DNA of 10,513 nucleotides, taken from the NCBI GenBank assembly GCA_021604825.1, contig BQJS01000165.1:1-10513 (forward strand), read 5' to 3'. How positions within the stretch are numbered: position 1 is the first letter of the stretch; every line of letters starts with the position of its first letter. Made by a program: the position numbers and the translations under genes. This DNA is from Phycisphaerae bacterium. GTDB lineage: Bacteria; Planctomycetota; Phycisphaerae; UBA1845. This document shows positions 1,045 through 10,513 of this stretch, one piece after another. Below the pieces are notes generated by a model. It was not told where the DNA came from. It saw only the letters and a program-made list of their open reading frames with translations, and ran no database searches.

Positions 1045-4000
1045 CTAACGTTGCCGCCGATGTCTTGGACGGCGAGCTTTCATGCGGCTGAAGCCAAGCA
1101 GCATCATGAGCATCGCTGCGGTTCCTGTACCACCGCATGGGACGTCAGCACCGCAATCGGCGTTATCTGTGGTGTCCGTATCGACGCATTCGCCATTGAC
1201 GCAATTCTGGCCCGTCGGGCAGTCCGCGTTGGCGGTGCATGCCGCGTCGTCGGTAGTGCACTCGCCGTCAACGCAAGTCTCACCTTGTGGGCAGTCTTGG
1301 CTGGTTTCGCAACCGTTGGTTGAAACCTGGCAAACGGTGTCAACGCAGACTTCGCCTTCAACGCAGTCGGCTGTCGACTCGCAGTCAGCGCCGGGCAGAC
1401 TGGTTTGCGGCAGCGGAATGGCGCAGCCCTCATCGTCAACGGCTGTCCCGGGCGGTGTGCCCTGGCAGAGGTCATTGCAATTGGGAACGCCATCGACGTC
1501 GGAATCGGTCTCCGCAACTCCACAACCGCATACGCCGGCGGCGGCTTTGCTGGCATCGTTGGGGCAATCATCGCAAGCGTCGCCTGCGCCGTCGCCATCG
1601 CTGTCGAGTTGGTTACCGTTTGAAGTGTCCGGACAGTTGTCGACGCAATCGAGGTCGCCGTCGCCATCACTGTCGCTATCCGCCGAACCGCAACCGCACA
1701 CACCGACAGCAGTCTTGTTGGCGTCGTTCGGACACGCATCACAGGCGTTGCCGCGACCGTCACCATCGCTGTCGGTTTGATTGGCATTGGCATTCAGCGG
1801 GCAGTTGTCGTTACAGTCGGGAATGCCGTCAAAGTCTGGATCTTCTTCCTCGACCCCACAGCCACATGCACCCGCTTCGGTTTCATTGGCGTCATCCGGA
1901 CAATCATCCACGCAATCCGGAGTGCCATCGTTGTCGGTATCGATTCGGTCGTCGGCTTCGTCACCGGTTCCGTTGGTGCAGACGTCGATGCAATTGGGCA
2001 CACCATCTCCATCCGAATCGGTTTCTGGGATGCCGCAATTGCAGCTACCGGGGGATGTCTTGGCCGGATCGGTTGGGCATCCGTCATTGCAGTTCGGCGT
2101 CCCGTCATTGTCAGTGTCGGTTTCAGGTGTACCGCAACCGCAAGTACCGGGTGCAATTTTCAAGAAATCGTTGGGGCAGCCGTCACACGGGTCAAACGTT
2201 CCGTCGTTGTCGGAATCGCCCTGGCAACCGTCCGGAATGCGGTCATTGTTGCAATCTGCACATTCGGCAGCGTTGGCGAAACCGGTCGGACAATTGGCAA
2301 TGTCATCCGTATCCAGAATCTGGTTGTCGTTGCAATCCTCACATTCGTCCGGAATGTCAGTGTTATCAACGTCAGGACTGGAACCCAAGGCAATATCACA
2401 TTCATCGAGAACATCGTTGGCGTTGCAGTCGTTGCCATCGATCTCGCAAATGTCTTGGATCTGGTTGTTGTTGCAATCGTCGTCCGGTTCGCACTCATCG
2501 AGGATGAGGTTATTGTTGCAGTCGTTGCCCGCAAGTTCGCAGATGTCCAGAACGCCATTGTTGTTGCAATTGTCCTGTGACTCGCACTCATCCGGAATCG
2601 AGTTGACGTTGCAGTCTTCGCTGCCAGCGGCGATGGCGCAGATGTCGAGTTCGCCATTGTCGTCGCAGTCGGCTTGGGACTGACATTCGTCTGGGATGTT
2701 GTTCCCGTCGCAGTCTTCAGACACGGTGCCGATGTCAATCGTGTCGGCAATACCGTTGGTGTTGCAGTCAGGTATGCAAACGCAGTTGTCGGTGCATTGT
2801 GAGTCAACGGGCACCTCGCCGCACGGACAGACATCCGGTGCCAACTTGCTGGAATCGAATGGGCAACCATCACAGGCATCGCCCGCGGGGTCGCCATCGT
2901 TGTTGATCTGATCGGCGTTGGGTATTTCAGGGCAGTTGTCCGAGTCCGTCGGTATACCGTCCAGATCGTCGTCGCGTGGGCCCACGGTAATGTTTTTACC
3001 GATCGTCTCCATCAGGCCGCTGTTGGGATTCGAGTTTAGTACCGTAAGCAAAACGTTGGCACCAAGTGGGAATCCCTGAGCATAGGTGTGTTCAACAATT
3101 TCTCCCGCATCTTCTACGACCTCGCCGTCTCCAAAATCCCACGTAAACTCGAGATCGGGATTGCCCAGTGCAAAAAATTCGTCGCGTGTCTGCGAAGCAT
3201 CAAATCGTACGTGCAACGGATTGGTCGGAGTTGGGTATGTGACTGTGAACTCTGGGAACATCTTTGGAATGACGTTGCCATTTTGGAATGTGACGGGCGG
3301 GCTATAACTCGATTTTCCTGTTGTAAAGAACGTGAATTCGTCCGGCGTGTTCAAGTTGTCGTTTGTCGACGAGAAACTGTGGATGCGGTACGACACGTTT
3401 CCAGCATTGTTGCTGTTTCCAGGATTACTTGCCAAAATCAGTTCGGTGCTGTTGGGCACTGAAATAATCTTATAAAAGCCAGTAACCGCATTCGTCCCAC
3501 CAGTGATTCTCACGACGTCGTTTGCGTCAAAATCGCTTGCGTCGAAGTTGGCAGATGCGTCCGTCAGTTTGAACTGGCCATTAAGATTTGAAACGTCGCC
3601 GGTTGAGCCCACGATCCCCGTCCAGTTGATCGTAAAGGAGACTTCGTTTTCGTCGCTGGTGTAGGGGACTCCGGTCGTTGCCGGATTCTGGAAGCCTGAC
3701 GCGTCTCCGAAAACAGCCCATATTTCGGCTCCAGGATTGGTGTGGTCGATACAGAGCAGGGTCCAACGTTCAAACTTCGATGTTGAGATGTCCACATCGA
3801 TCGGTCCCGACTGGCCCACAATTTCACCGCGACCCTTGTTTGAACCAGCCGGTTTACCGGGCGACGACACCGGATCGGTGCGCCCATCTTGACCGGGGCC
3901 TGGAACCAATCTCGCGTAGAAGAAGTAAGTGCCATCGCCAGGGAGGCTGATAAGGGGGACATTGTAAGTGCCATTAATCAACCCAGGACCTTTGGATTGG

Positions 4001-7000
4001 GTTGGGGTAAGTAGTGTTCCGTCGAAGCCGCTATTGTCAGTGTCAAAGTAGAATTCGATCGTCGTGCCGCCATCGTAGTCGAATGCTTCGTAACGCAATC
4101 GATAATTCGATCCGACAACTTGTCCCAATTGTGACGTGCTAAAATTGAGGGACGGTACGAGACGTGGATTCCAGAAGAATAACACGAATGAACTCTCATC
4201 TGTTTCAAAAATATCCAGAATAGAAATGCCGCTGGCATCACCGCTATACCAGGTTGAATCAGGCGTCGTCCCAGCTTCAAGCCATTCTCTAACACCAAAG
4301 CCATCTGGGCCGGGGCTGGTTCCGGGGAAGGGGTCTCCAGAATCACCAGCGTCGGAACCGTTGTCCGCCTGTACGATACCGTAGACCGGATTCGAGCCCA
4401 CACGTTGCACCAGAGGTTGCGATTCTGCCGAGTTCAAGTTGTCGTCGGGCAGGTTGACGTGCATGATCAGCAATCCCTCGCCCGGCGCATTTCGTGAAAA
4501 GTTGATGACGTTGCCACCGACGCCACCCAGGTCCATTGGGTCGTTGTCGGTCAACCGCCAAAAATAGAATCGCTCTTCCAGTTGGGGATCCGCGTTGTTG
4601 CCTCTATTCTGATAGTAAAACACAGAGTTGGTTGGCTCGAGTGCAAAGTCAGGTATTTCGATGACTGTTGGAATCAACGGTTCGAGAACGTCAGTAAGGT
4701 CAGTGACTTCAATCCATGGTGCATGCGCGGTGCCAACAGCCAATGGAATGCCGGTTTCAAGTGGACCACCTTGTCCAACGAACTTTTCTTTTAGCACCGG
4801 AGACGGGTGAACGAGTCCGCCAGCCATAATGTCCCACCCGCCGACGGGTATATCCACAATGCCTTGACCGTCCAGGTATACGTCATAGTCGTAAAGGTCT
4901 GGATAGCGTTCCCAAACATGAAGCCACTCGTGGGCCATTAGCGTCTTGCTGAAGTCATTGACGCTACCACCGGTCTCGCCAACGTCACCCAATGCCGTAC
5001 CGAAGTCGGAGAAATAAATCGGAGATAGTGATCCGAGATCCTCTTCGACCACCTGAATCGGAAGATCCATGCCGGGAGCAGGGAGTTGGAACAAACCACG
5101 ACCGCCTGGCGCCAAGCCTGGCGCGATAATCCCAGCGGGCAGCACGAAAGTCGAATGTACAAAGTTTACACCGACCTCGACCTCAAAGCCGTTTGTGACG
5201 ACCACCGACTGCTTGGTTGACATGATGAGATTGTCCCAATCCGCAACGCCGTCATGGACTTCGACGGCATCTTCCGTGAGACGGCGTCGATTAAATGGAT
5301 AGGCTTCGCTGGGACTTCCATCGCCTGGCGTCGCCGGATCTGCATCACGTGCGTAGTTTTCTGTGCCCACATCCCGGACTTCGCCTTGATCAAGAAGCCC
5401 GTCAAGGTTGTAATCGCGCTTCATCGCAACGCCGGAGGTTGCGTCATCGTCCTTGCGCCATGTCAAGAACTCCAGAGTCAATACGTTTCCACCGTCGTAA
5501 CCAGAGGTGCCATGAATGTTGTATGCAAACGGACCGGCTGGAGGAACCGTATTGTCAAGGTTTGTTTCCCCCGATCCTGGATTGTTCGGGCCGCGATCGT
5601 GACCCCACGGGGTACTTGCAAATGGAGATGTCACTTCTCCAAATCTTCCATCGCCGCCGTACCATTCGCCCCTAAAGCCAATGGTCGTTGCATCAGGTGC
5701 CCCATTCGTATCGAGAAATGGCTGTCCGACAAAACCGGAATAACTCGGCGGATCAATCCAAAAGCTTCTGGTGTGATAGATCGAGGATGGTAAGTCCTGG
5801 AACTCAGCTGGACCATCATAATACCCGTCCTCGTCGGGCCGGATGATGTTTGAGTTACCGATTCCGTCATTGCCATCCACAATGTCGCCGTTACCAACAC
5901 TTTCTTCGTCCGTCACCGGAACATGACATTCCGGCATTAGCGGATCGCCGTCGACGTCGTTTGTGTCGGTTGGATCAGGGTCACATTCTTCACCACCACG
6001 GCGGGCATTGGTGCCTCCGGCATTTGGGCGGAATGGGCGATAGCGATCGTTGTTAGTTTGATTGGGACTTGTAGGATTAAACGGCTGCATGTCGGGAATA
6101 TTGATGGGCCATTCGGGTGCATCTGGAGCAGGAACCGGCCGCACACCCACCGCGTAATGCGAGTCGCGCCAGTAGTCCCTCCACCACCGACCGTATGAGA
6201 CAATGGAGTTGCCGTAACCCGAGCCGGGAGGTGGCGTTGTCAAAGGCAGTGGGAACAGAATGTCCAAATCATTCGATCGTTGGAGCTTTGAATTCCCTCT
6301 ATCGACCCATGAATCTGGACCGTCGTACTTGCCATTTCCGCAGCGGGCGATCAGTGCGTCGGCATCACCGGGATAGTTGCGCTTGATGTAGGCGATTGCC
6401 CACGCCCGACTGCCCACACTCTCTGCATCACCGTCGTCGGTATTGTTTTCGCTTGGATCGAGTCGGACCCATGGGCCGTCGGAGCTTTCGGCCTCTGGGT
6501 AGTAGACGAGCAAAAAGTCTTCGAACGGCTCCGGAAAGTCCCACTGCTCATTCTCGTTTTCGTCGCAGAATTCGTCGCCGTTGATTAATCCGTCAAATTC
6601 GCATGTCACATTCTCACCACTGCCAACCCGCTGTCCGTAGCCGTCCGCAGTGCTTTCGATCAATGCGTCATAGCGACCGTCATTGTCCATGTCCAAGAAA
6701 CGCTCGCCAGGCGTCCACACTTCAATTCCATTCGTGTCATAGTCTTCAAGGCCGGGAGGATCTTCTTCTGCTCCCGAATACGGGTCGTCCTCGGTCCCAG
6801 TTGAATTATCATTATTGTACGATCCATTGTAATCGATCATGAACTGTTGCTTACTTTGATCAAATTCCTCACCGACGAAGTTGAAGAGCAAGAAATCCCC
6901 GTCAAGATCGTCGAACGTGATTTCCTGTGCGCCGCCGTTTGGAAGGAGTGGCCAAGGGACTTCACCCCAATCGAAGACATCGCCTGCGACGGTGACTTCA

Positions 7001-7275
7001 CCGTAGGAGATTTCTCTCCAATATTCGTTGAATGAATGAATCGATGGATCAAAGTCATCAAAGTATTGAGCGAAGATGTCTTGTGGTTCCACAGAGGTCA
7101 CCCCTGGCGGGGGATATCCGCCGTTAACGGATTTGGGGGGCACGACCATCATCACTGTGAACTTGCGTTCTTCGGCGACGGCTTGCGTTGCCACGAACAG
7201 CGAGAAGACGGTTGCCCAAACCAAGCCTGAGCAGACCCAGTTGCAGATACCTTGTGTGCGGTTGTCGGTTTTCAC
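1045..7275 (-). CDS. Giant exported M6-family zinc metalloprotease with PKD, calcium-loop repeats and C-terminal anchor
   Basis: A predicted secreted or surface zinc endopeptidase of 2076 residues. I chose GTG at 7273-7275 because GGGGAG lies 5 nt upstream and a classical signal peptide follows (basic start, hydrophobic stretch, cleavage after TQAVA). A TTG at 7315-7317 in the same frame would add 14 polar residues. Order of parts: signal peptide (1-34); start of an M6-like fold (about 40-110, including SFNEYWREISYGEVTVAGD); long acidic insertions with D-x-D-x-D-G calcium-type loops (about 120-680); zinc site HEWLH (782-786) followed by YPDLYD, and GGWDIMAGG (812-820), which matches the Met-containing segment of M6 peptidases; beta-rich region (about 900-1330); PKD domain with FTWDFGDGE (about 1343-1432); first TSP3-like unit (1433-1473); DCNxN repeats (1503-1686); TSP3-like repeats (1687-1951); CxxxxDCPxGExCVxGxC units (1964-2031); sorting-like tail (2041-2076). 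M6 proteases such as immune inhibitor A are usually well under 1000 residues. Substrate is unknown. It probably forms a single-gene transcript ending at the 982-1016 terminator. Confidence 0.88.
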   Translation of the reverse strand: MKTDNRTQGICNWVCSGLVWATVFSLFVATQAVAEERKFTVMMVVPPKSVNGGYPPPGVTSVEPQDIFAQYFDDFDPSIHSFNEYWREISYGEVTVAGDVFDWGEVPWPLLPNGGAQEITFDDLDGDFLLFNFVGEEFDQSKQQFMIDYNGSYNNDNSTGTEDDPYSGAEEDPPGLEDYDTNGIEVWTPGERFLDMDNDGRYDALIESTADGYGQRVGSGENVTCEFDGLINGDEFCDENENEQWDFPEPFEDFLLVYYPEAESSDGPWVRLDPSENNTDDGDAESVGSRAWAIAYIKRNYPGDADALIARCGNGKYDGPDSWVDRGNSKLQRSNDLDILFPLPLTTPPPGSGYGNSIVSYGRWWRDYWRDSHYAVGVRPVPAPDAPEWPINIPDMQPFNPTSPNQTNNDRYRPFRPNAGGTNARRGGEECDPDPTDTNDVDGDPLMPECHVPVTDEESVGNGDIVDGNDGIGNSNIIRPDEDGYYDGPAEFQDLPSSIYHTRSFWIDPPSYSGFVGQPFLDTNGAPDATTIGFRGEWYGGDGRFGEVTSPFASTPWGHDRGPNNPGSGETNLDNTVPPAGPFAYNIHGTSGYDGGNVLTLEFLTWRKDDDATSGVAMKRDYNLDGLLDQGEVRDVGTENYARDADPATPGDGSPSEAYPFNRRRLTEDAVEVHDGVADWDNLIMSTKQSVVVTNGFEVEVGVNFVHSTFVLPAGIIAPGLAPGGRGLFQLPAPGMDLPIQVVEEDLGSLSPIYFSDFGTALGDVGETGGSVNDFSKTLMAHEWLHVWERYPDLYDYDVYLDGQGIVDIPVGGWDIMAGGLVHPSPVLKEKFVGQGGPLETGIPLAVGTAHAPWIEVTDLTDVLEPLIPTVIEIPDFALEPTNSVFYYQNRGNNADPQLEERFYFWRLTDNDPMDLGGVGGNVINFSRNAPGEGLLIMHVNLPDDNLNSAESQPLVQRVGSNPVYGIVQADNGSDAGDSGDPFPGTSPGPDGFGVREWLEAGTTPDSTWYSGDASGISILDIFETDESSFVLFFWNPRLVPSLNFSTSQLGQVVGSNYRLRYEAFDYDGGTTIEFYFDTDNSGFDGTLLTPTQSKGPGLINGTYNVPLISLPGDGTYFFYARLVPGPGQDGRTDPVSSPGKPAGSNKGRGEIVGQSGPIDVDISTSKFERWTLLCIDHTNPGAEIWAVFGDASGFQNPATTGVPYTSDENEVSFTINWTGIVGSTGDVSNLNGQFKLTDASANFDASDFDANDVVRITGGTNAVTGFYKIISVPNSTELILASNPGNSNNAGNVSYRIHSFSSTNDNLNTPDEFTFFTTGKSSYSPPVTFQNGNVIPKMFPEFTVTYPTPTNPLHVRFDASQTRDEFFALGNPDLEFTWDFGDGEVVEDAGEIVEHTYAQGFPLGANVLLTVLNSNPNSGLMETIGKNITVGPRDDDLDGIPTDSDNCPEIPNADQINNDGDPAGDACDGCPFDSSKLAPDVCPCGEVPVDSQCTDNCVCIPDCNTNGIADTIDIGTVSEDCDGNNIPDECQSQADCDDNGELDICAIAAGSEDCNVNSIPDECESQDNCNNNGVLDICELAGNDCNNNLILDECEPDDDCNNNQIQDICEIDGNDCNANDVLDECDIALGSSPDVDNTDIPDECEDCNDNQILDTDDIANCPTGFANAAECADCNNDRIPDGCQGDSDNDGTFDPCDGCPNDFLKIAPGTCGCGTPETDTDNDGTPNCNDGCPTDPAKTSPGSCNCGIPETDSDGDGVPNCIDVCTNGTGDEADDRIDTDNDGTPDCVDDCPDDANETEAGACGCGVEEEDPDFDGIPDCNDNCPLNANANQTDSDGDGRGNACDACPNDANKTAVGVCGCGSADSDSDGDGDLDCVDNCPDTSNGNQLDSDGDGAGDACDDCPNDASKAAAGVCGCGVAETDSDVDGVPNCNDLCQGTPPGTAVDDEGCAIPLPQTSLPGADCESTADCVEGEVCVDTVCQVSTNGCETSQDCPQGETCVDGECTTDDAACTANADCPTGQNCVNGECVDTDTTDNADCGADVPCGGTGTAAMLMMLLGFSRMKARRPRHRRQR
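1048..1155 (-). other. C-terminal sorting/anchoring tail of the M6 protease
   Basis: The last 36 residues form a tripartite tail: a short Cys/Gly motif (CGADVPCGGTG), a hydrophobic stretch of about 12 residues (AAMLMMLLGFS), then a strongly basic end (MKARRPRHRRQR). This is the general design of PEP-CTERM, GlyGly-CTERM and MYXO-CTERM tails, where a short motif is processed and the helix and Arg cluster hold the protein in the inner membrane until then. The motif here fits none of the named families exactly; the cysteines resemble MYXO-CTERM most. The design is seen directly; the sorting role is inferred. Confidence 0.6.
1183..1386 (-). repeat. Three Cys-rich modules of CxxxxDCPxGExCVxGxC type (protein-level)
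   Basis: Inside the M6 protease, three consecutive units of about 22-25 residues each carry five or so cysteines: CESTADCVEGEVCVDTVC, CETSQDCPQGETCVDGEC and CTANADCPTGQNCVNGEC. They are degenerate at DNA level. Similar small disulfide modules occur near the C-termini of surface proteins of myxobacteria and planctomycetes. They probably form a stiff disulfide-bonded stalk next to the membrane tail. Confidence 0.7.
1423..2217 (-). repeat. TSP3-like calcium-binding repeats with CGCG linkers (protein-level)
   Basis: Residues 1687-1951 of the protease contain about seven units of roughly 33-40 residues. Each has an acidic loop such as DSDNDGTPNCND, then CP-x-D-A/P-x-K and a small CGCG or CNCG turn. 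The D-x-D-x-D-G-x-x-D spacing is that of thrombospondin type 3 calcium loops. Units vary, so this is an old protein repeat and not a recent DNA duplication. The repetitive D/N/C codons also create long meaningless open frames on the opposite strand. Confidence 0.8.
2218..2769 (-). repeat. Alternating DCNxNxIPDEC / NCNNNGxLDIC repeats (protein-level)
   Basis: Residues 1503-1686 of the protease hold about ten short calcium-loop units. Seven consecutive ones end alternately in DEC and DIC: NNIPDEC, NGELDIC, NSIPDEC, NGVLDIC, NLILDEC, NQIQDIC, NDVLDEC. The linker after a DEC unit is short (QSQA, ESQD, EPDD); the linker after a DIC unit is AIAAGSE, ELAGN or EIDGN. The real period is therefore a pair of loops, about 27-33 residues. 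Repeats of this DCNGNGIPDEC type are frequent in planctomycete exported proteins. Confidence 0.75.
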
Positions 7276-7280
7276 GGCAG

Positions 7281-7286
7281 CTCCCC
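7281..7286 (-). promoter_or_regulatory. Ribosome binding site that fixes the M6 protease start
   Basis: GGGGAG on the minus strand lies 5 nt before GTG 7273-7275. The upstream TTG at 7315-7317 has no comparable purine-rich sequence. The site therefore supports the GTG start and places the signal peptide right at the N-terminus. Confidence 0.65.
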
Positions 7287-7312
7287 AATGGCTCGTTTGG
7301 TTGTCTTGATCC

Positions 7313-7354
7313 AGCAAGCAGTGTGAATCTTGTAGGGTGAATCTTCGAGCAAGC
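7313..7354. promoter_or_regulatory. Symmetric nested direct repeats upstream of the M6 protease (possible operator)
   Basis: Reading the plus strand: AGCAAGC (7313-7319), 3 nt, GTGAATCT (7323-7330), 6 nt, GTGAATCT (7337-7344), 3 nt, AGCAAGC (7348-7354). Both repeats are exact, direct and evenly spaced. The inner pair is offset by 14 bp and the outer pair by 35 bp. The block lies 38-79 nt upstream of the GTG start, where a promoter or leader would be. Its function is unknown; a regulator binding site is an inference. No convincing -35/-10 pair was found near it. Confidence 0.4.
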
Positions 7355-7740: not shown

Positions 7741-8676
7741 TTATCGGCCTTCGTCTTTAAGTGATCTGACTCGTTCTAGGATTGGACCCCAAGACGCGCG
7801 GTGGTGAACCATCATCGGGAATATCTCACGAACACGCCCCGATTTATCAATCAAGTAGGTGCTGGTCTGATGATATCGGCCCTTGGTTTGACCTTTGAGG
7901 TCGGCGACCACTCTGAACTTTGGAGCGGGTTTGAAGTGCTTCAGGAATTTGGCATGTGTTACCAAATCCTTATCCTCCTGCGCCACTGCGACAACCACGG
8001 TATCGAGTTTCTCAAATTCGTCATAGCTTTCCTGCAACTGAACCAGTTGCTTCGCGCAGAACGGTCACCAAAACGCCCGGTAGGTTGTGATTATGATGTT
8101 TGACTTGCCGATTAATTCGGCGAGATCAACCTGCGTGCCATCAGCTTGCGGTAGCGAGATGGCCTTGACCTTCTCGCCTATCTTCACAAAGCCATTGCCA
8201 CTCCATGATGCGTCGCCGACTTCGACTTCTACGCCAGCGCCATGTGCGACGACAGGGACGGCCAGCCGCTTGCGAACGAATTGGCTGGTACCGTCCTCCG
8301 AATCCACATAAGCCACAAAGTTGATCGCGATTCGATCATCGGCAGTCGGTGCCTCGAGCAGCTTGAATTCGATTCTGGTTGACTTGGATTCCAGGGCTCG
8401 TTCAAACGGCGCATGCAGGAATTCATTCTTGGCCAATGCCTTGTGTTCCTTGAGTACTTCACCGACCAATTCGATCGACTTGGGAACTTCGATTTGAATC
8501 AGCGGGACCGGGATGCCGGAATTTTCAACGGATGCATCGGCTGGGAGGTCCCAATCAAACGTGACGTGATAGGTTTCTCCGACCTTCAACTGTTCCGCAT
8601 CAATCTTCGCGGAAATCTCAATGGCGTTGGGTTGCAGAATCCCCAGCGCCATGGTGCAAAGCAGTGGCATCCACAT
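7741..8676 (-). CDS. Selenocysteine-containing thioredoxin/peroxiredoxin-like protein (UxxC), read through TGA 8065-8067
   Basis: A predicted 311-residue redox protein, if the single in-frame TGA is decoded as selenocysteine. ATG 8674-8676 is preceded by GGAG with a 10-nt spacer; the stop is TAA 7741-7743. Residues 1-18 (MWMPLLCTMALGILQPNA) are hydrophobic and may be a weak signal or anchor, though they lack basic residues. Residues about 20-165 are beta-rich with a conserved-looking start (KIDAEQLKVGETYHVTFDWD) reminiscent of DsbD N-terminal-like domains; that likeness is tentative. Residues about 166-311 are a redoxin: NIIITTYRAFW-U204-PFCAKQLVQLQ, then TVVVAVAQED, FRVVADLKGQ and STYLIDKSGRVREIF, all in family order. 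U204 takes the place of the first Cys of CxxC; C207 is kept. Likely reaction: thiol-disulfide exchange or peroxide reduction; the substrate is unknown. It is apparently monocistronic. Ordinary gene calling would give a 203-residue truncated product or a C-terminal fragment. Alternatives are a pseudogene or a sequencing error. Confidence 0.88.
8029..8061 (-). promoter_or_regulatory. Candidate bacterial SECIS hairpin
   Basis: Counting the U of UGA as 1, GCAACUG (18-24) pairs perfectly with CAGUUGC (28-34) around a GUU loop (25-27). A short lower helix, UUCU (7-10) with GGAA (36-39), may extend it across an internal loop. Bacterial SECIS elements lie inside the coding region just after the UGA and present a small apical loop with a G near its start, which SelB recognises. 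In E. coli fdhF the key loop bases are G23 and U24; here the loop is G25-U26-U27. The bulged U of fdhF is not obvious, and bacterial elements are known to vary. Confidence 0.75.
8065..8067 (-). other. In-frame UGA read as selenocysteine (U204)
   Basis: The codons around it are TAC CGG GCG TTT TGG TGA CCG TTC TGC GCG AAG (Y R A F W U P F C A K). The frame is open for 203 codons before and 107 after. Redoxins of this family have Cys at exactly this position, a classical Cys-to-Sec exchange. The next base is C, a context that tends to make UGA a poor stop. Confidence 0.85.
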
Positions 8677-8779
8677 TTAACTTATTCTCCAGAGAGTTGA
8701 CTGCGCCCGGTTTGTGACCCGCCAGCCCCGCATGAATCGTGAACGGTGGCCATCGAGTCAATCATTGGATCTGAAAGAG

Positions 8780-8927: not shown

Positions 8928-10513
8928 ATGTCGGAAAGAACCGGTCGTTACATCATGCTCGTCAGTGTTCATGGCCGCGTCCGTGGCTCTGAGATGGAGT
9001 TGGGCGCTGATCCCGATACCGGTGGGCAGATTACGTACGTCGTCGAGTTGGCCCGTGCCCTCATTGATCATCCCGATATCGACCGCGTCGATCTGGTCAC
9101 CCGGCGGCTGATCGACCCCAAGGTAGATTCCAGCTACGCCGAGCCGATCGAAGCGCTGGCCCCCAATGTGAACATCGTTCGCATCGAATGTGGTCCCAAG
9201 CGATATTTGGCAAAGGAATCATTGTGGCCCCATCTCGATAGCTTCTCAGATAACCTGCTCCATTTCCTGCGTAATCAAGGACGGATTCCCGACTTGATCC
9301 ACGGGCATTATGCTGACGCCGGTTATGTGGCCGGTCGGTTGTCGTCGCTTCTGGGGATTCCCATGGCCTTCACCGGGCACTCGCTCGGACGGGTCAAGAA
9401 GCAACGTTTGCTCGAACAAGGGATGGCCGAAGAGTCGATCGAAAAGCGCTATCGGATCAGTCGCCGCATCGAGGCTGAGGAATACGCCTTGGATAACGCG
9501 ACGTTCGTCGTCACGAGCACCAATCAGGAAGTCGAACAGCAGTACGAACTTTACGACAACTATCAACCCAAACGAATGACGGTGATTCCGCCGGCGGTTG
9601 ATCTCAGTCGCTTCACACCACCGCCGAGAAGTTGGCGCAACCTCCCCAAGATTCACAAAGCCATCACGCCGTTTCTCGAAGATTGGGGCAAGCCGATGAT
9701 CCTCGCGGTGTCGCGCCCCGATCCGCGGAAAAACATCTCTGCGTTGATCAAGGCATACGGTGAGAATGAAGCCCTTCGCGATGTCGCCAATCTGGTGATC
9801 GTTGCGGGCAATCGAACAGATATCAGCAAACTTGACCGTAGTGCTCGCGAAGTGATCAACGAGATTCTTCAATACGTGGACCTTTACAACCTCTACGGTC
9901 AAATGGCATATCCGAAGAACCACGATTCCAGCGACGTGCCTTATCTGTATCAATTGGCGGCGAAGACCAAGGGGGTGTTTGTAAATCCGGCATTGACCGA
10001 ACCGTTTGGGTTGACGCTCCTGGAGTCGGCGGCCAGCGGTTTACCGATCGTTGCCACTTCAGATGGTGGTCCGCGAGACATCATCGGACTGTGCAAGAAC
10101 GGCGTGCTGATCGACCCGCTCGACACGGATGCGATGGGGGAGGCACTGCTGGGCGCCGTTTCTGATCGGGCGCAATGGGGCAAGTGGTCGCGCTCCGGTT
10201 TGCGCGGAGCCCATCGACATTATTCCTGGGCGGCGCACGTTAAGAAATATGTCAGCACCGCTAGCTCCGCGATCCGCACGTCCCATAAACGCCAGCGCAC
10301 GCTTTCGACGGCGGCTAGACTCATTACGGCTGATCGAATTGTGGTTTGCGACATCGACAACACGTTGGTTGGCGACAAGAGCGGGCTTCGCGAATTGATC
10401 CGTCGACTTAAAGATGTCGGATCGCACGTGGCATTCGGAATAGCGACCGGACGAAGTCTCGAATTGACGCTATCTGTCTTGCGTGAGTGGAAGATTCCAA
10501 CGCCACAACTCTT
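8928..10513 (+). CDS. sps: Sucrose-phosphate synthase-type GT4 glycosyltransferase fused to a HAD phosphatase domain, 5' 528 codons
   Basis: Sucrose-phosphate synthase makes sucrose-6-phosphate from a nucleotide-glucose and fructose-6-phosphate; the HAD domain removes the phosphate. Sucrose would act in the cytoplasm as compatible solute or reserve. ATG 8928-8930 follows AAGGGAG by 5 nt, and the frame is open to the right edge. Seen: the SPS signature VHGRVRGSEMELGADPDTGGQ (14-34, split here: HGRVRG, MELG, DTGGQ), HGHYADAG (125-132), TGHSLGRVK (149-157), the donor-site SRPDPRKN (262-269), NPALTEPFGLTLLE (353-366), then a linker of about 90 residues and the HAD start VVCDIDNTLVGD (472-483; D475 and D477 are the catalytic aspartates) and ATGRS (506-510). 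Full SPS-SPP fusions are about 700 residues, so most of the phosphatase lies outside. Strict substrate choice (sucrose against, say, mannosylfructose) cannot be decided by eye. Confidence 0.93.
   Translation, partial: MSERTGRYIMLVSVHGRVRGSEMELGADPDTGGQITYVVELARALIDHPDIDRVDLVTRRLIDPKVDSSYAEPIEALAPNVNIVRIECGPKRYLAKESLWPHLDSFSDNLLHFLRNQGRIPDLIHGHYADAGYVAGRLSSLLGIPMAFTGHSLGRVKKQRLLEQGMAEESIEKRYRISRRIEAEEYALDNATFVVTSTNQEVEQQYELYDNYQPKRMTVIPPAVDLSRFTPPPRSWRNLPKIHKAITPFLEDWGKPMILAVSRPDPRKNISALIKAYGENEALRDVANLVIVAGNRTDISKLDRSAREVINEILQYVDLYNLYGQMAYPKNHDSSDVPYLYQLAAKTKGVFVNPALTEPFGLTLLESAASGLPIVATSDGGPRDIIGLCKNGVLIDPLDTDAMGEALLGAVSDRAQWGKWSRSGLRGAHRHYSWAAHVKKYVSTASSAIRTSHKRQRTLSTAARLITADRIVVCDIDNTLVGDKSGLRELIRRLKDVGSHVAFGIATGRSLELTLSVLREWKIPTPQL

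What the first reader, a model, noticed from the sequence alone, without database searches (positions are those of the whole stretch)
7741..8676. Undetected selenoprotein: redoxin with Sec at the first position of CxxC, hidden by an in-frame TGA
Seen directly: a 203-codon frame and a downstream open frame share one reading frame and are separated only by TGA 8065-8067. Translation across it gives YRAFW-U-PFCAKQL, where redoxins have FWCPFC. All family features downstream continue in order with no other lesion. Known: Cys-to-Sec exchange in UxxC redoxins is the commonest kind of bacterial selenoprotein, and gene callers truncate at the UGA. Inferred: the host uses Sec, and this is a functional enzyme. 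I cannot tell whether this exact architecture has been described.
Basis: partly seen in the sequence, partly recalled or inferred. Interest (0 to 1): 0.93.

Follow-up and report, generated by a model that had tools for sequence, protein, structure and literature searches.

The report
Hidden selenocysteine redox enzyme in planctomycetes
A gene that is stored cut short at an in-frame TGA belongs to a bacterial redox-protein family in which all 43 relatives checked keep that TGA and a hairpin just after it, so the TGA is very likely read as the rare amino acid selenocysteine and the protein is predicted to work as a selenium-based redox enzyme.

Summary
On the minus strand (8676..7741) a 311-codon frame holds one internal TGA, 8067..8065. 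In all 43 other genomes whose codon I read, the aligned codon is TGA; in 42 of them 102-122 further codons stay open, and one runs off its contig. The part after the TGA is under purifying selection. A 6-bp hairpin at fixed spacing is kept in 47 of 47 TGA loci (44 of this family) against 6.3 on average when synonymous codons are resampled, and resembles the bacterial SECIS model. In the class surveyed 32 of 33 gene carriers have a selA match, against 115 of 364 others. In two genomes the gene follows selB, selA, tRNA-Sec and a deiodinase-like TGA gene. Cys homologues align at this codon, but only in single-domain redoxins; no full-length Cys form was found, and 46 of 48 database hits end right before the TGA. 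New is the family: a beta-sandwich without Pfam match fused to a Prx/ResA-like UxxC domain. The window's own genome is not held; its Sec machinery is inferred.

The parts
7741..8676 (-). Whole coding frame, 311 codons with U204, stop TAA at 7741-7743
   Evidence: Translation with TGA=U shows one internal stop; start, stop and GGAGA at 8686-8690 read
8065..8067 (-). In-frame TGA, predicted selenocysteine codon (residue 204)
   Evidence: TGA in 43 of 43 other genomes of the family whose codon was read
8034..8050 (-). Predicted bacterial SECIS hairpin, 6-7 bp with GUU top, starting at the 15th nucleotide after the TGA
   Evidence: 98.1% of cells paired on 23 sequences, 4 of 7 pairs changed on both sides; 47 of 47 TGA loci keep 6 bp, synonymous resampling mean 6.3, maximum 15
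8056..8058 (-). Cys207 codon, second position of UxxC, likely resolving residue
   Evidence: Invariant in 23 of 23
7825..8181 (-). AhpC-TSA / redoxin domain (residues 166-284)
   Evidence: Pfam PF00578, 65.2 bits against a cut-off of 26; profile hits to Bcp1 3drn, 3hdc and ResA in the PDB
8197..8628 (-). N-terminal beta-sandwich domain (residues 17-160) without Pfam match
   Evidence: No Pfam family at E<=1 for the window's copy; of 23 members two families match one member each, best E 0.051; AlphaFold2 pLDDT 84.8
8629..8676 (-). Hydrophobic N-terminal stretch (residues 1-16), possible signal peptide
   Evidence: Mean Kyte-Doolittle +1.31 in the window, at least +1.0 in 21 of 23 with start codons chosen by my rule; pLDDT under 50; no signal-peptide predictor was run

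Best explanation
The TGA at 8067..8065 lies inside one conserved coding frame and very likely is read as selenocysteine, which would give a 311-residue two-domain redox protein, predicted to be exported, with a U-P-F-C active site. Shown: the frame, the conserved TGA, the covarying hairpin, purifying selection after the TGA, Sec genes in relatives, and linkage to them in a few. Inferred: SelB with Sec-tRNA(Sec) binds the hairpin that starts at the 15th nucleotide after the UGA and inserts Sec. Inferred: Sec204, in the first Cys place of ResA-type CxxC motifs, attacks a disulfide or peroxide, Cys207 resolves it to a selenenylsulfide, and a thioredoxin-like donor reduces it again. The N-terminal beta-sandwich has no conserved Cys and would serve binding or docking rather than catalysis.
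For: Frame and TGA. TGA at the aligned position in 22 of 22 loci of a codon-blind scan and in 16 further class and 5 further phylum genomes. dN/dS after the TGA 0.055-0.194 in 15 of 15 pairs, 0.076-0.281 before it (dS near or above 1, so rough). Hairpin; coupled synonymous codons CAA-TTG 31, CAG-CTG 14, CAG-TTG 2, CAA-CTG 0 of 47. Over cut-off in 22 genomes: tRNA-Sec 17, selB 18, selA 17, selD 20; one in-frame TGA in 20 of 20 selD matches that reach its N-terminus (position read only in L119). selA at E<=1e-30 in 32 of 33 carriers against 115 of 364 others, Fisher p 3e-14. Gene clusters in L119 and L120. Cys at the same position in 9 single-domain homologues.
Against: No selenium was measured. 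The window's own genome is not held. Of 22 relatives' genomes tRNA-Sec is below cut-off in 5, selB in 4, selA in 5, selD in 2 (MAGs; completeness not told). The tRNA-Sec model is over its cut-off in 5 of 14 control genomes, so that cut-off is lax; the 17 counted score 64.6-76.6 bits, the next match 49.6. 3 of 9 Cys homologues also form all 7 hairpin pairs, so protein sequence helps the hairpin. One control, further pair types, is not clear (59 of 500 shuffles as high). The window's hairpin region alone is not unusual (z -0.64). P0015 is stored with Trp at this position, perhaps called with code 4; its DNA was not seen. The Arg at 270, Prx-type by recall, is Gln in the window and five others of 23.
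Confidence: 0.94

Rival explanations
1. The gene ends at the TGA: a 203-residue protein, with a decayed or separately translated remnant behind it.
For: It is stored this way: 46 of 48 hits, the window's own record among them, end there. A TTG-started 98-aa ORF is listed after it.
Against: The cut falls inside the redoxin domain, before the UxxC. The part after it evolves under purifying selection, dN/dS 0.055-0.194, in one frame in 42 of 43 genomes, the other running off its contig. The covarying hairpin and the selA association would be unexplained.
Confidence: 0.03
2. TGA is read as another amino acid such as Trp, by a changed code or leaky readthrough.
For: P0015 is stored with Trp there.
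Against: TGA ends the same gene in 8 of 23 members. The hairpin, the Sec genes and the Cys homologues all point to Sec.
Confidence: 0.02
3. Sequencing error for TGC or TGT.
For: The Cys homologues use TGC or TGT.
Against: The same TGA in 43 other genomes.
Confidence: 0.005

Closest known systems
Prx-like thiol:disulfide oxidoreductase selenoproteins, PF00578, UxxC/UxxU (table passages of PMC13188914; 'Prx-like 1' of the GOS survey PMC2398784)
   Same: PF00578 domain, UxxC, Sec in the first place
   Different: Here an N-terminal beta-sandwich domain is fused, and no full-length Cys form was found; the GOS table gives Prx-like 1 2,740 Cys homologues to 225 Sec forms
SelL-related redox proteins (NCBIfam NF040769)
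   Same: 23 of 23 members match, best E 9.4e-10
   Different: The window scores 34 bits against a cut-off of 120; UxxC, not the UxxU that I recall for SelL
ResA-type thiol-disulfide oxidoreductases
   Same: U204 and C207 fall on the WCxxC motif of 3hdc and ResA in profile alignments
   Different: No Pro in the stretch before YLID, where the cis-Pro usually stands (recalled); 47.5 bits against the ResA cut-off of 170
Bcp-type peroxiredoxin (3drn)
   Same: Best profile hit in the PDB, E 1e-12
   Different: U204 falls on Thr and C207 on Ser of that chain: a TxxC-type site, not UxxC
Single-domain Cys redoxins of Planctomycetota (L129, L133-L140)
   Same: RA[HN]W-C-PxC at the same column in 9 of 9
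   Different: No N-domain found upstream, and a separate branch of the tree

Membership tests
Bacterial selenoprotein gene | In-frame TGA conserved with coding constraint after it | tested here: met
Bacterial selenoprotein gene | bSECIS: 4-16 bp stem, 3-9 nt loop with G in its first two positions, 16-37 nt from UGA, MFE at most -7.5 (model in PMC13188914 section 5) | tested here: met
   Six outer pairs and an early loop G in 47 of 47, about 20 nt from UGA to loop, 50-nt MFE -8.9 or lower in all. Against: the 6-bp stem scored alone with an open 5-nt loop reaches -7.5 in only 12 of 47; the seventh pair or flanking pairs make up the rest
Bacterial selenoprotein gene | selA, selB, selC, selD in the same genome | not testable with these tools
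   Window's genome not held; in 22 relatives all four are over cut-off in 15
Bacterial selenoprotein gene | Homologues with Cys at the Sec position | tested here: met
   9 single-domain loci with TGC or TGT; none of full length
Bacterial selenoprotein gene | Selenium in the protein | not testable with these tools
   Needs 75Se labelling or mass spectrometry
Prx-like thiol:disulfide oxidoreductase (PF00578, UxxC) | PF00578 domain above cut-off with UxxC | tested here: met
   65.2 bits against 26 (Cys put for U); UPFC
SelL_rel_redox (NF040769) | Score above the curated cut-off of 120 bits | tested here: not met
   34 bits
ResA (NF002854) | Score above the curated cut-off of 170 bits | tested here: not met
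   47.5 bits
DsbD N-terminal domain (for residues 17-160) | Same fold and the active-site Cys pair (pair recalled) | tested here: inconclusive
   Foldseek rank 1 is 6dps, E 2.5e-3, but rmsd 8.6; not among the VIA-align rows shown; no conserved Cys in the domain

The most novel reading that the evidence does not exclude
This is a family of obligate selenoproteins: an exported enzyme in which a domain of no known family is fused to a Sec redoxin and which exists only with selenocysteine, so methods that find selenoproteins through Cys homologues and callers that stop at TGA both miss it. Together with a deiodinase-like selenoprotein it rides in selD-selB-selA-selC islands and forms a selenium-dependent envelope redox pathway of planctomycetes.
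Probability: 0.4. Interest if true: 0.72.

Novelty: new variant of a known kind. Interest (0 to 1): 0.57.

Why it matters
46 of 48 database hits are 192-227 residue stubs that end one codon before the active-site TGA, and the 7 of them that carry a source name are called 'hypothetical protein', so the catalytic half of an enzyme is missing from annotation. A family without full-length Cys homologues is the kind that the usual Cys/TGA-pair searches would likely miss, and the coupled synonymous codons make it a clean test case for bacterial SECIS models in Planctomycetota.

Tried and rejected
Wrong-strand translation at first. The window alone gives no tRNA or RNA-family evidence, and its hairpin region alone is unremarkable (z -0.64); only the alignment and the synonymous resampling made the case. 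The viral-contig scan found no relative. Conserved neighbours as a clue to function: among 26 loci compared, many short, the sucrose-phosphate-synthase and giant-protein genes recur beside the gene only in L001-L004 and L022, and purD in four of these five, so rejected. N-domain as a DsbD-N member: left open; the fold searches give weak or generic beta-sandwich matches and the profile has no PDB hit better than E 0.85. A low phylum match in G692 (E 2.4e-14, profile positions 77-303, three TGA) was not followed. Seven literature searches brought up no paper that, by listing or passages read, describes this family. PMC4807772 treats selenoproteins of other Planctomycetes (passages; its table S9 was not readable here). 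The word start 'planctomy' does not occur in the held text of PMC13188914, PMC9312934 or PMC12013277. The reviews list a 'Redoxin family protein', UxxC, whose sequence I could not compare, so overlap with it is not excluded.

Full report
Observation. On the minus strand, 8676..7741 is one frame of 311 codons with a single internal stop, TGA 8067..8065; it ends with TAA. The stretch after the TGA is open only in this frame (0 stops; 2-7 in the other five) and keeps a similar codon-position G+C pattern. Pfam AhpC-TSA and Redoxin matches run across the TGA (Cys put for U).

Relatives. A protein search with the readthrough product returned 14 proteins, 12 of them 202-204 or 195 residues long besides the window's own record P0002 and P0015. 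A profile search returned 48 (only 7998 candidates were scored), of which 46, P0002 included, end at [YF]RA[FHY]W, the residue before the TGA, and none is 260 residues or longer; the other two are P0015, with Trp at the position, and P0049, a generic redoxin. A scan of the species-genome collection with two peptide patterns that do not cover residue 204 matched 39 stretches; 23 encode a relative, giving 22 distinct loci, all titled Planctomycetota or Phycisphaerae/Phycisphaerales except L004, titled Alphaproteobacteria but drawn within the class of G001. In 22 of 22 and the window the aligned codon is TGA, followed by 102-117 open codons.

Wider survey. In 397 genomes of the class (at most five candidates scored in each), 33 have the gene at E<=1e-30, each with at least one in-frame TGA. 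I read the codon in all 33, 17 of which were already known: L089-L118 and L120, G301 and G392. All are TGA. G301 runs off its contig 37 codons later. In 392 genomes of the phylum, five further full-length members (G417, G500, G445, G530, G725) are TGA; a second copy in G021 shows one TGA in the listing but its position was not read. Together that is 43 genomes besides the window. G530 and G725 are divergent (UGRC and USVC instead of UPxC).

Cys homologues. Nine phylum loci (L129, L133-L140) have TGC or TGT at the aligned codon, with RA[HN]W-C-PxC; the profile of the N-domain finds nothing upstream of them. Three others (L130-L132) are Sec redoxins of a different build, WW-U-L[YF]C with 261-280 codons after the TGA, also without the N-domain. 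Other weak redoxin matches were not read. In a redoxin-domain tree of 56 rows the 44 two-domain Sec genes lie on one side of a branch (96/87), and the 9 Cys forms (100/99) and the 3 other Sec forms (99/93) each on theirs; the bootstrap had not settled, the root is not known, and L127 and L128 are long branches.

Coding constraint. In 15 pairs of the six closest genes dN/dS is 0.076-0.281 before and 0.055-0.194 after the TGA (dS near or above 1, so values are rough). U204 and P205, C207, Q210, Q233, E234, D235, D277, P287, R293 and W296 are invariant in 23.

SECIS. A hairpin GCAACUG-GUU-CAGUUGC starts at the 15th nucleotide after the TGA. On 23 sequences 98.1% of cells pair (shuffles 94.0%, 0 of 500 as high) and 4 of 7 pairs change on both sides (0 of 500); the number of further pair types is not beyond the shuffles (59 of 500); slid structures pair 4-40%. 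RNAalifold predicts the same stem unaided. Over 47 distinct TGA loci (44 of this family, 3 of the other build) all keep the six outer pairs; resampling synonymous codons by pooled usage keeps them in 6.3 on average and in 15 at most over 1000 trials. Gln and Leu codons in the two arms are coupled: CAA-TTG 31, CAG-CTG 14, CAG-TTG 2, CAA-CTG 0 (loci are related, so these are not independent events). In the Cys loci 3 of 9 keep the stem against 1.1 expected; they may be relics or chance. The published model (section 5 of PMC13188914) is met in stem length, loop, early G and spacing, and in energy when the 50-nt region is folded; the 6-bp stem alone meets the energy limit in 12 of 47.

Sec machinery. 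In the 22 genomes, over cut-off: tRNA-Sec 17, selB 18, selA 17, selD 20; all four in 15, at least one in 22. Controls over cut-off among 14 named genomes: tRNA-Sec 5, selB 2, selA 1, selD 2; the tRNA-Sec cut-off is therefore lax, but the 17 counted matches score 64.6-76.6 bits and the next one 49.6. In the class sample selA matches at E<=1e-30 in 147 of 397 (144 over cut-off): 32 of the 33 gene carriers and 115 of 364 non-carriers (taken as the same draw by their handles; Fisher p 3e-14; species are related, so p is optimistic). The exception, G006, has selD with a TGA and a selB split over two frames below the cut-off. Many genomes have selA without this gene, so it is not the only reason to keep the Sec system.

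Linkage. In L119 (G116) selD with a TGA, selB, selA, tRNA-Sec, a deiodinase-like gene with FGCLT-U-PPF and the redoxin gene follow on one strand; in L120 (G343) selB, selA, tRNA-Sec, the deiodinase-like gene and, about 1.3 kb on, the redoxin; in L121 (G205) selB-selA lie about 8 kb upstream with other genes between ('deiodinase-like' is my reading of the motif, no family search was run on it). These were picked because and 36 listed gene and selA on one contig; they are 3 of 33. The window itself shows no such cluster within 10.5 kb.

Structure and function. AlphaFold2 on 23 sequences gives pLDDT 89.3, pTM 0.86. The C-terminal half matches Bcp/peroxiredoxin and ResA structures. The N-terminal half folds as a beta-sandwich without a clear relative and has no conserved Cys. 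The N-terminus is hydrophobic in 21 of 23, given start codons chosen by my rule, so export is likely but no predictor was run. From this I infer a Prx/ResA-like Sec oxidoreductase of the cell envelope; substrate and reductant are unknown.

Literature. Sec redoxins with UxxC are a known kind: 'Prx-like thiol:disulfide oxidoreductase' and 'Redoxin family protein' in PMC13188914 (abstract, sections 5 and 9, passages of section 7) and PMC9312934 (passages), 'Prx-like 1' and 'Prx-like 3' in PMC2398784 (passages and section 9), where the fused domains as a rule hold a conserved Cys, unlike here. PMC4807772 (passages) reports Sec machinery and selenoproteins in other Planctomycetes. PMC12013277 (passages) says that SECIS-independent methods use Cys/TGA pairs. 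I met no description of this two-domain family in searches (listings, and the passages named), nor an NCBIfam model whose cut-off the window's protein reaches, nor a Pfam model for its N-domain.

Noticed in passing
L119 whole; L120 whole: selB-selA-tRNA-Sec followed by a deiodinase-like gene with in-frame TGA (FGCLT-U-PPFLRN) and the redoxin gene: a selenium gene island; selD with TGA stands before it in L119.
   Followed up: partly
L130, L131, L132: Another Sec redoxin group, WW-U-L[YF]C, with 261-280 codons after the TGA and no N-domain found upstream; the extension was not analysed.
   Followed up: no
L135, L136, L137: Cys redoxins that still form all seven pairs of the SECIS-like hairpin; possible relics of a Sec ancestor, or chance.
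   Followed up: no
G358:C353:463-1812 (no locus): The selA match of this genome is listed with one TGA inside; not looked at.
   Followed up: no
window 1045-7317 minus: 2090-residue protein with weak PKD, thrombospondin-3 and M6-metalloprotease-domain matches below cut-offs; a relative recurs next to the redoxin gene in L001-L004 and L022.
   Followed up: partly
window 8928-10511 plus: Sucrose-phosphate synthase with the start of a fused sucrose-phosphatase domain, cut by the window end.
   Followed up: no
L127 (G530), L128 (G725): Divergent members with UGRC and USVC in place of UPxC.
   Followed up: no
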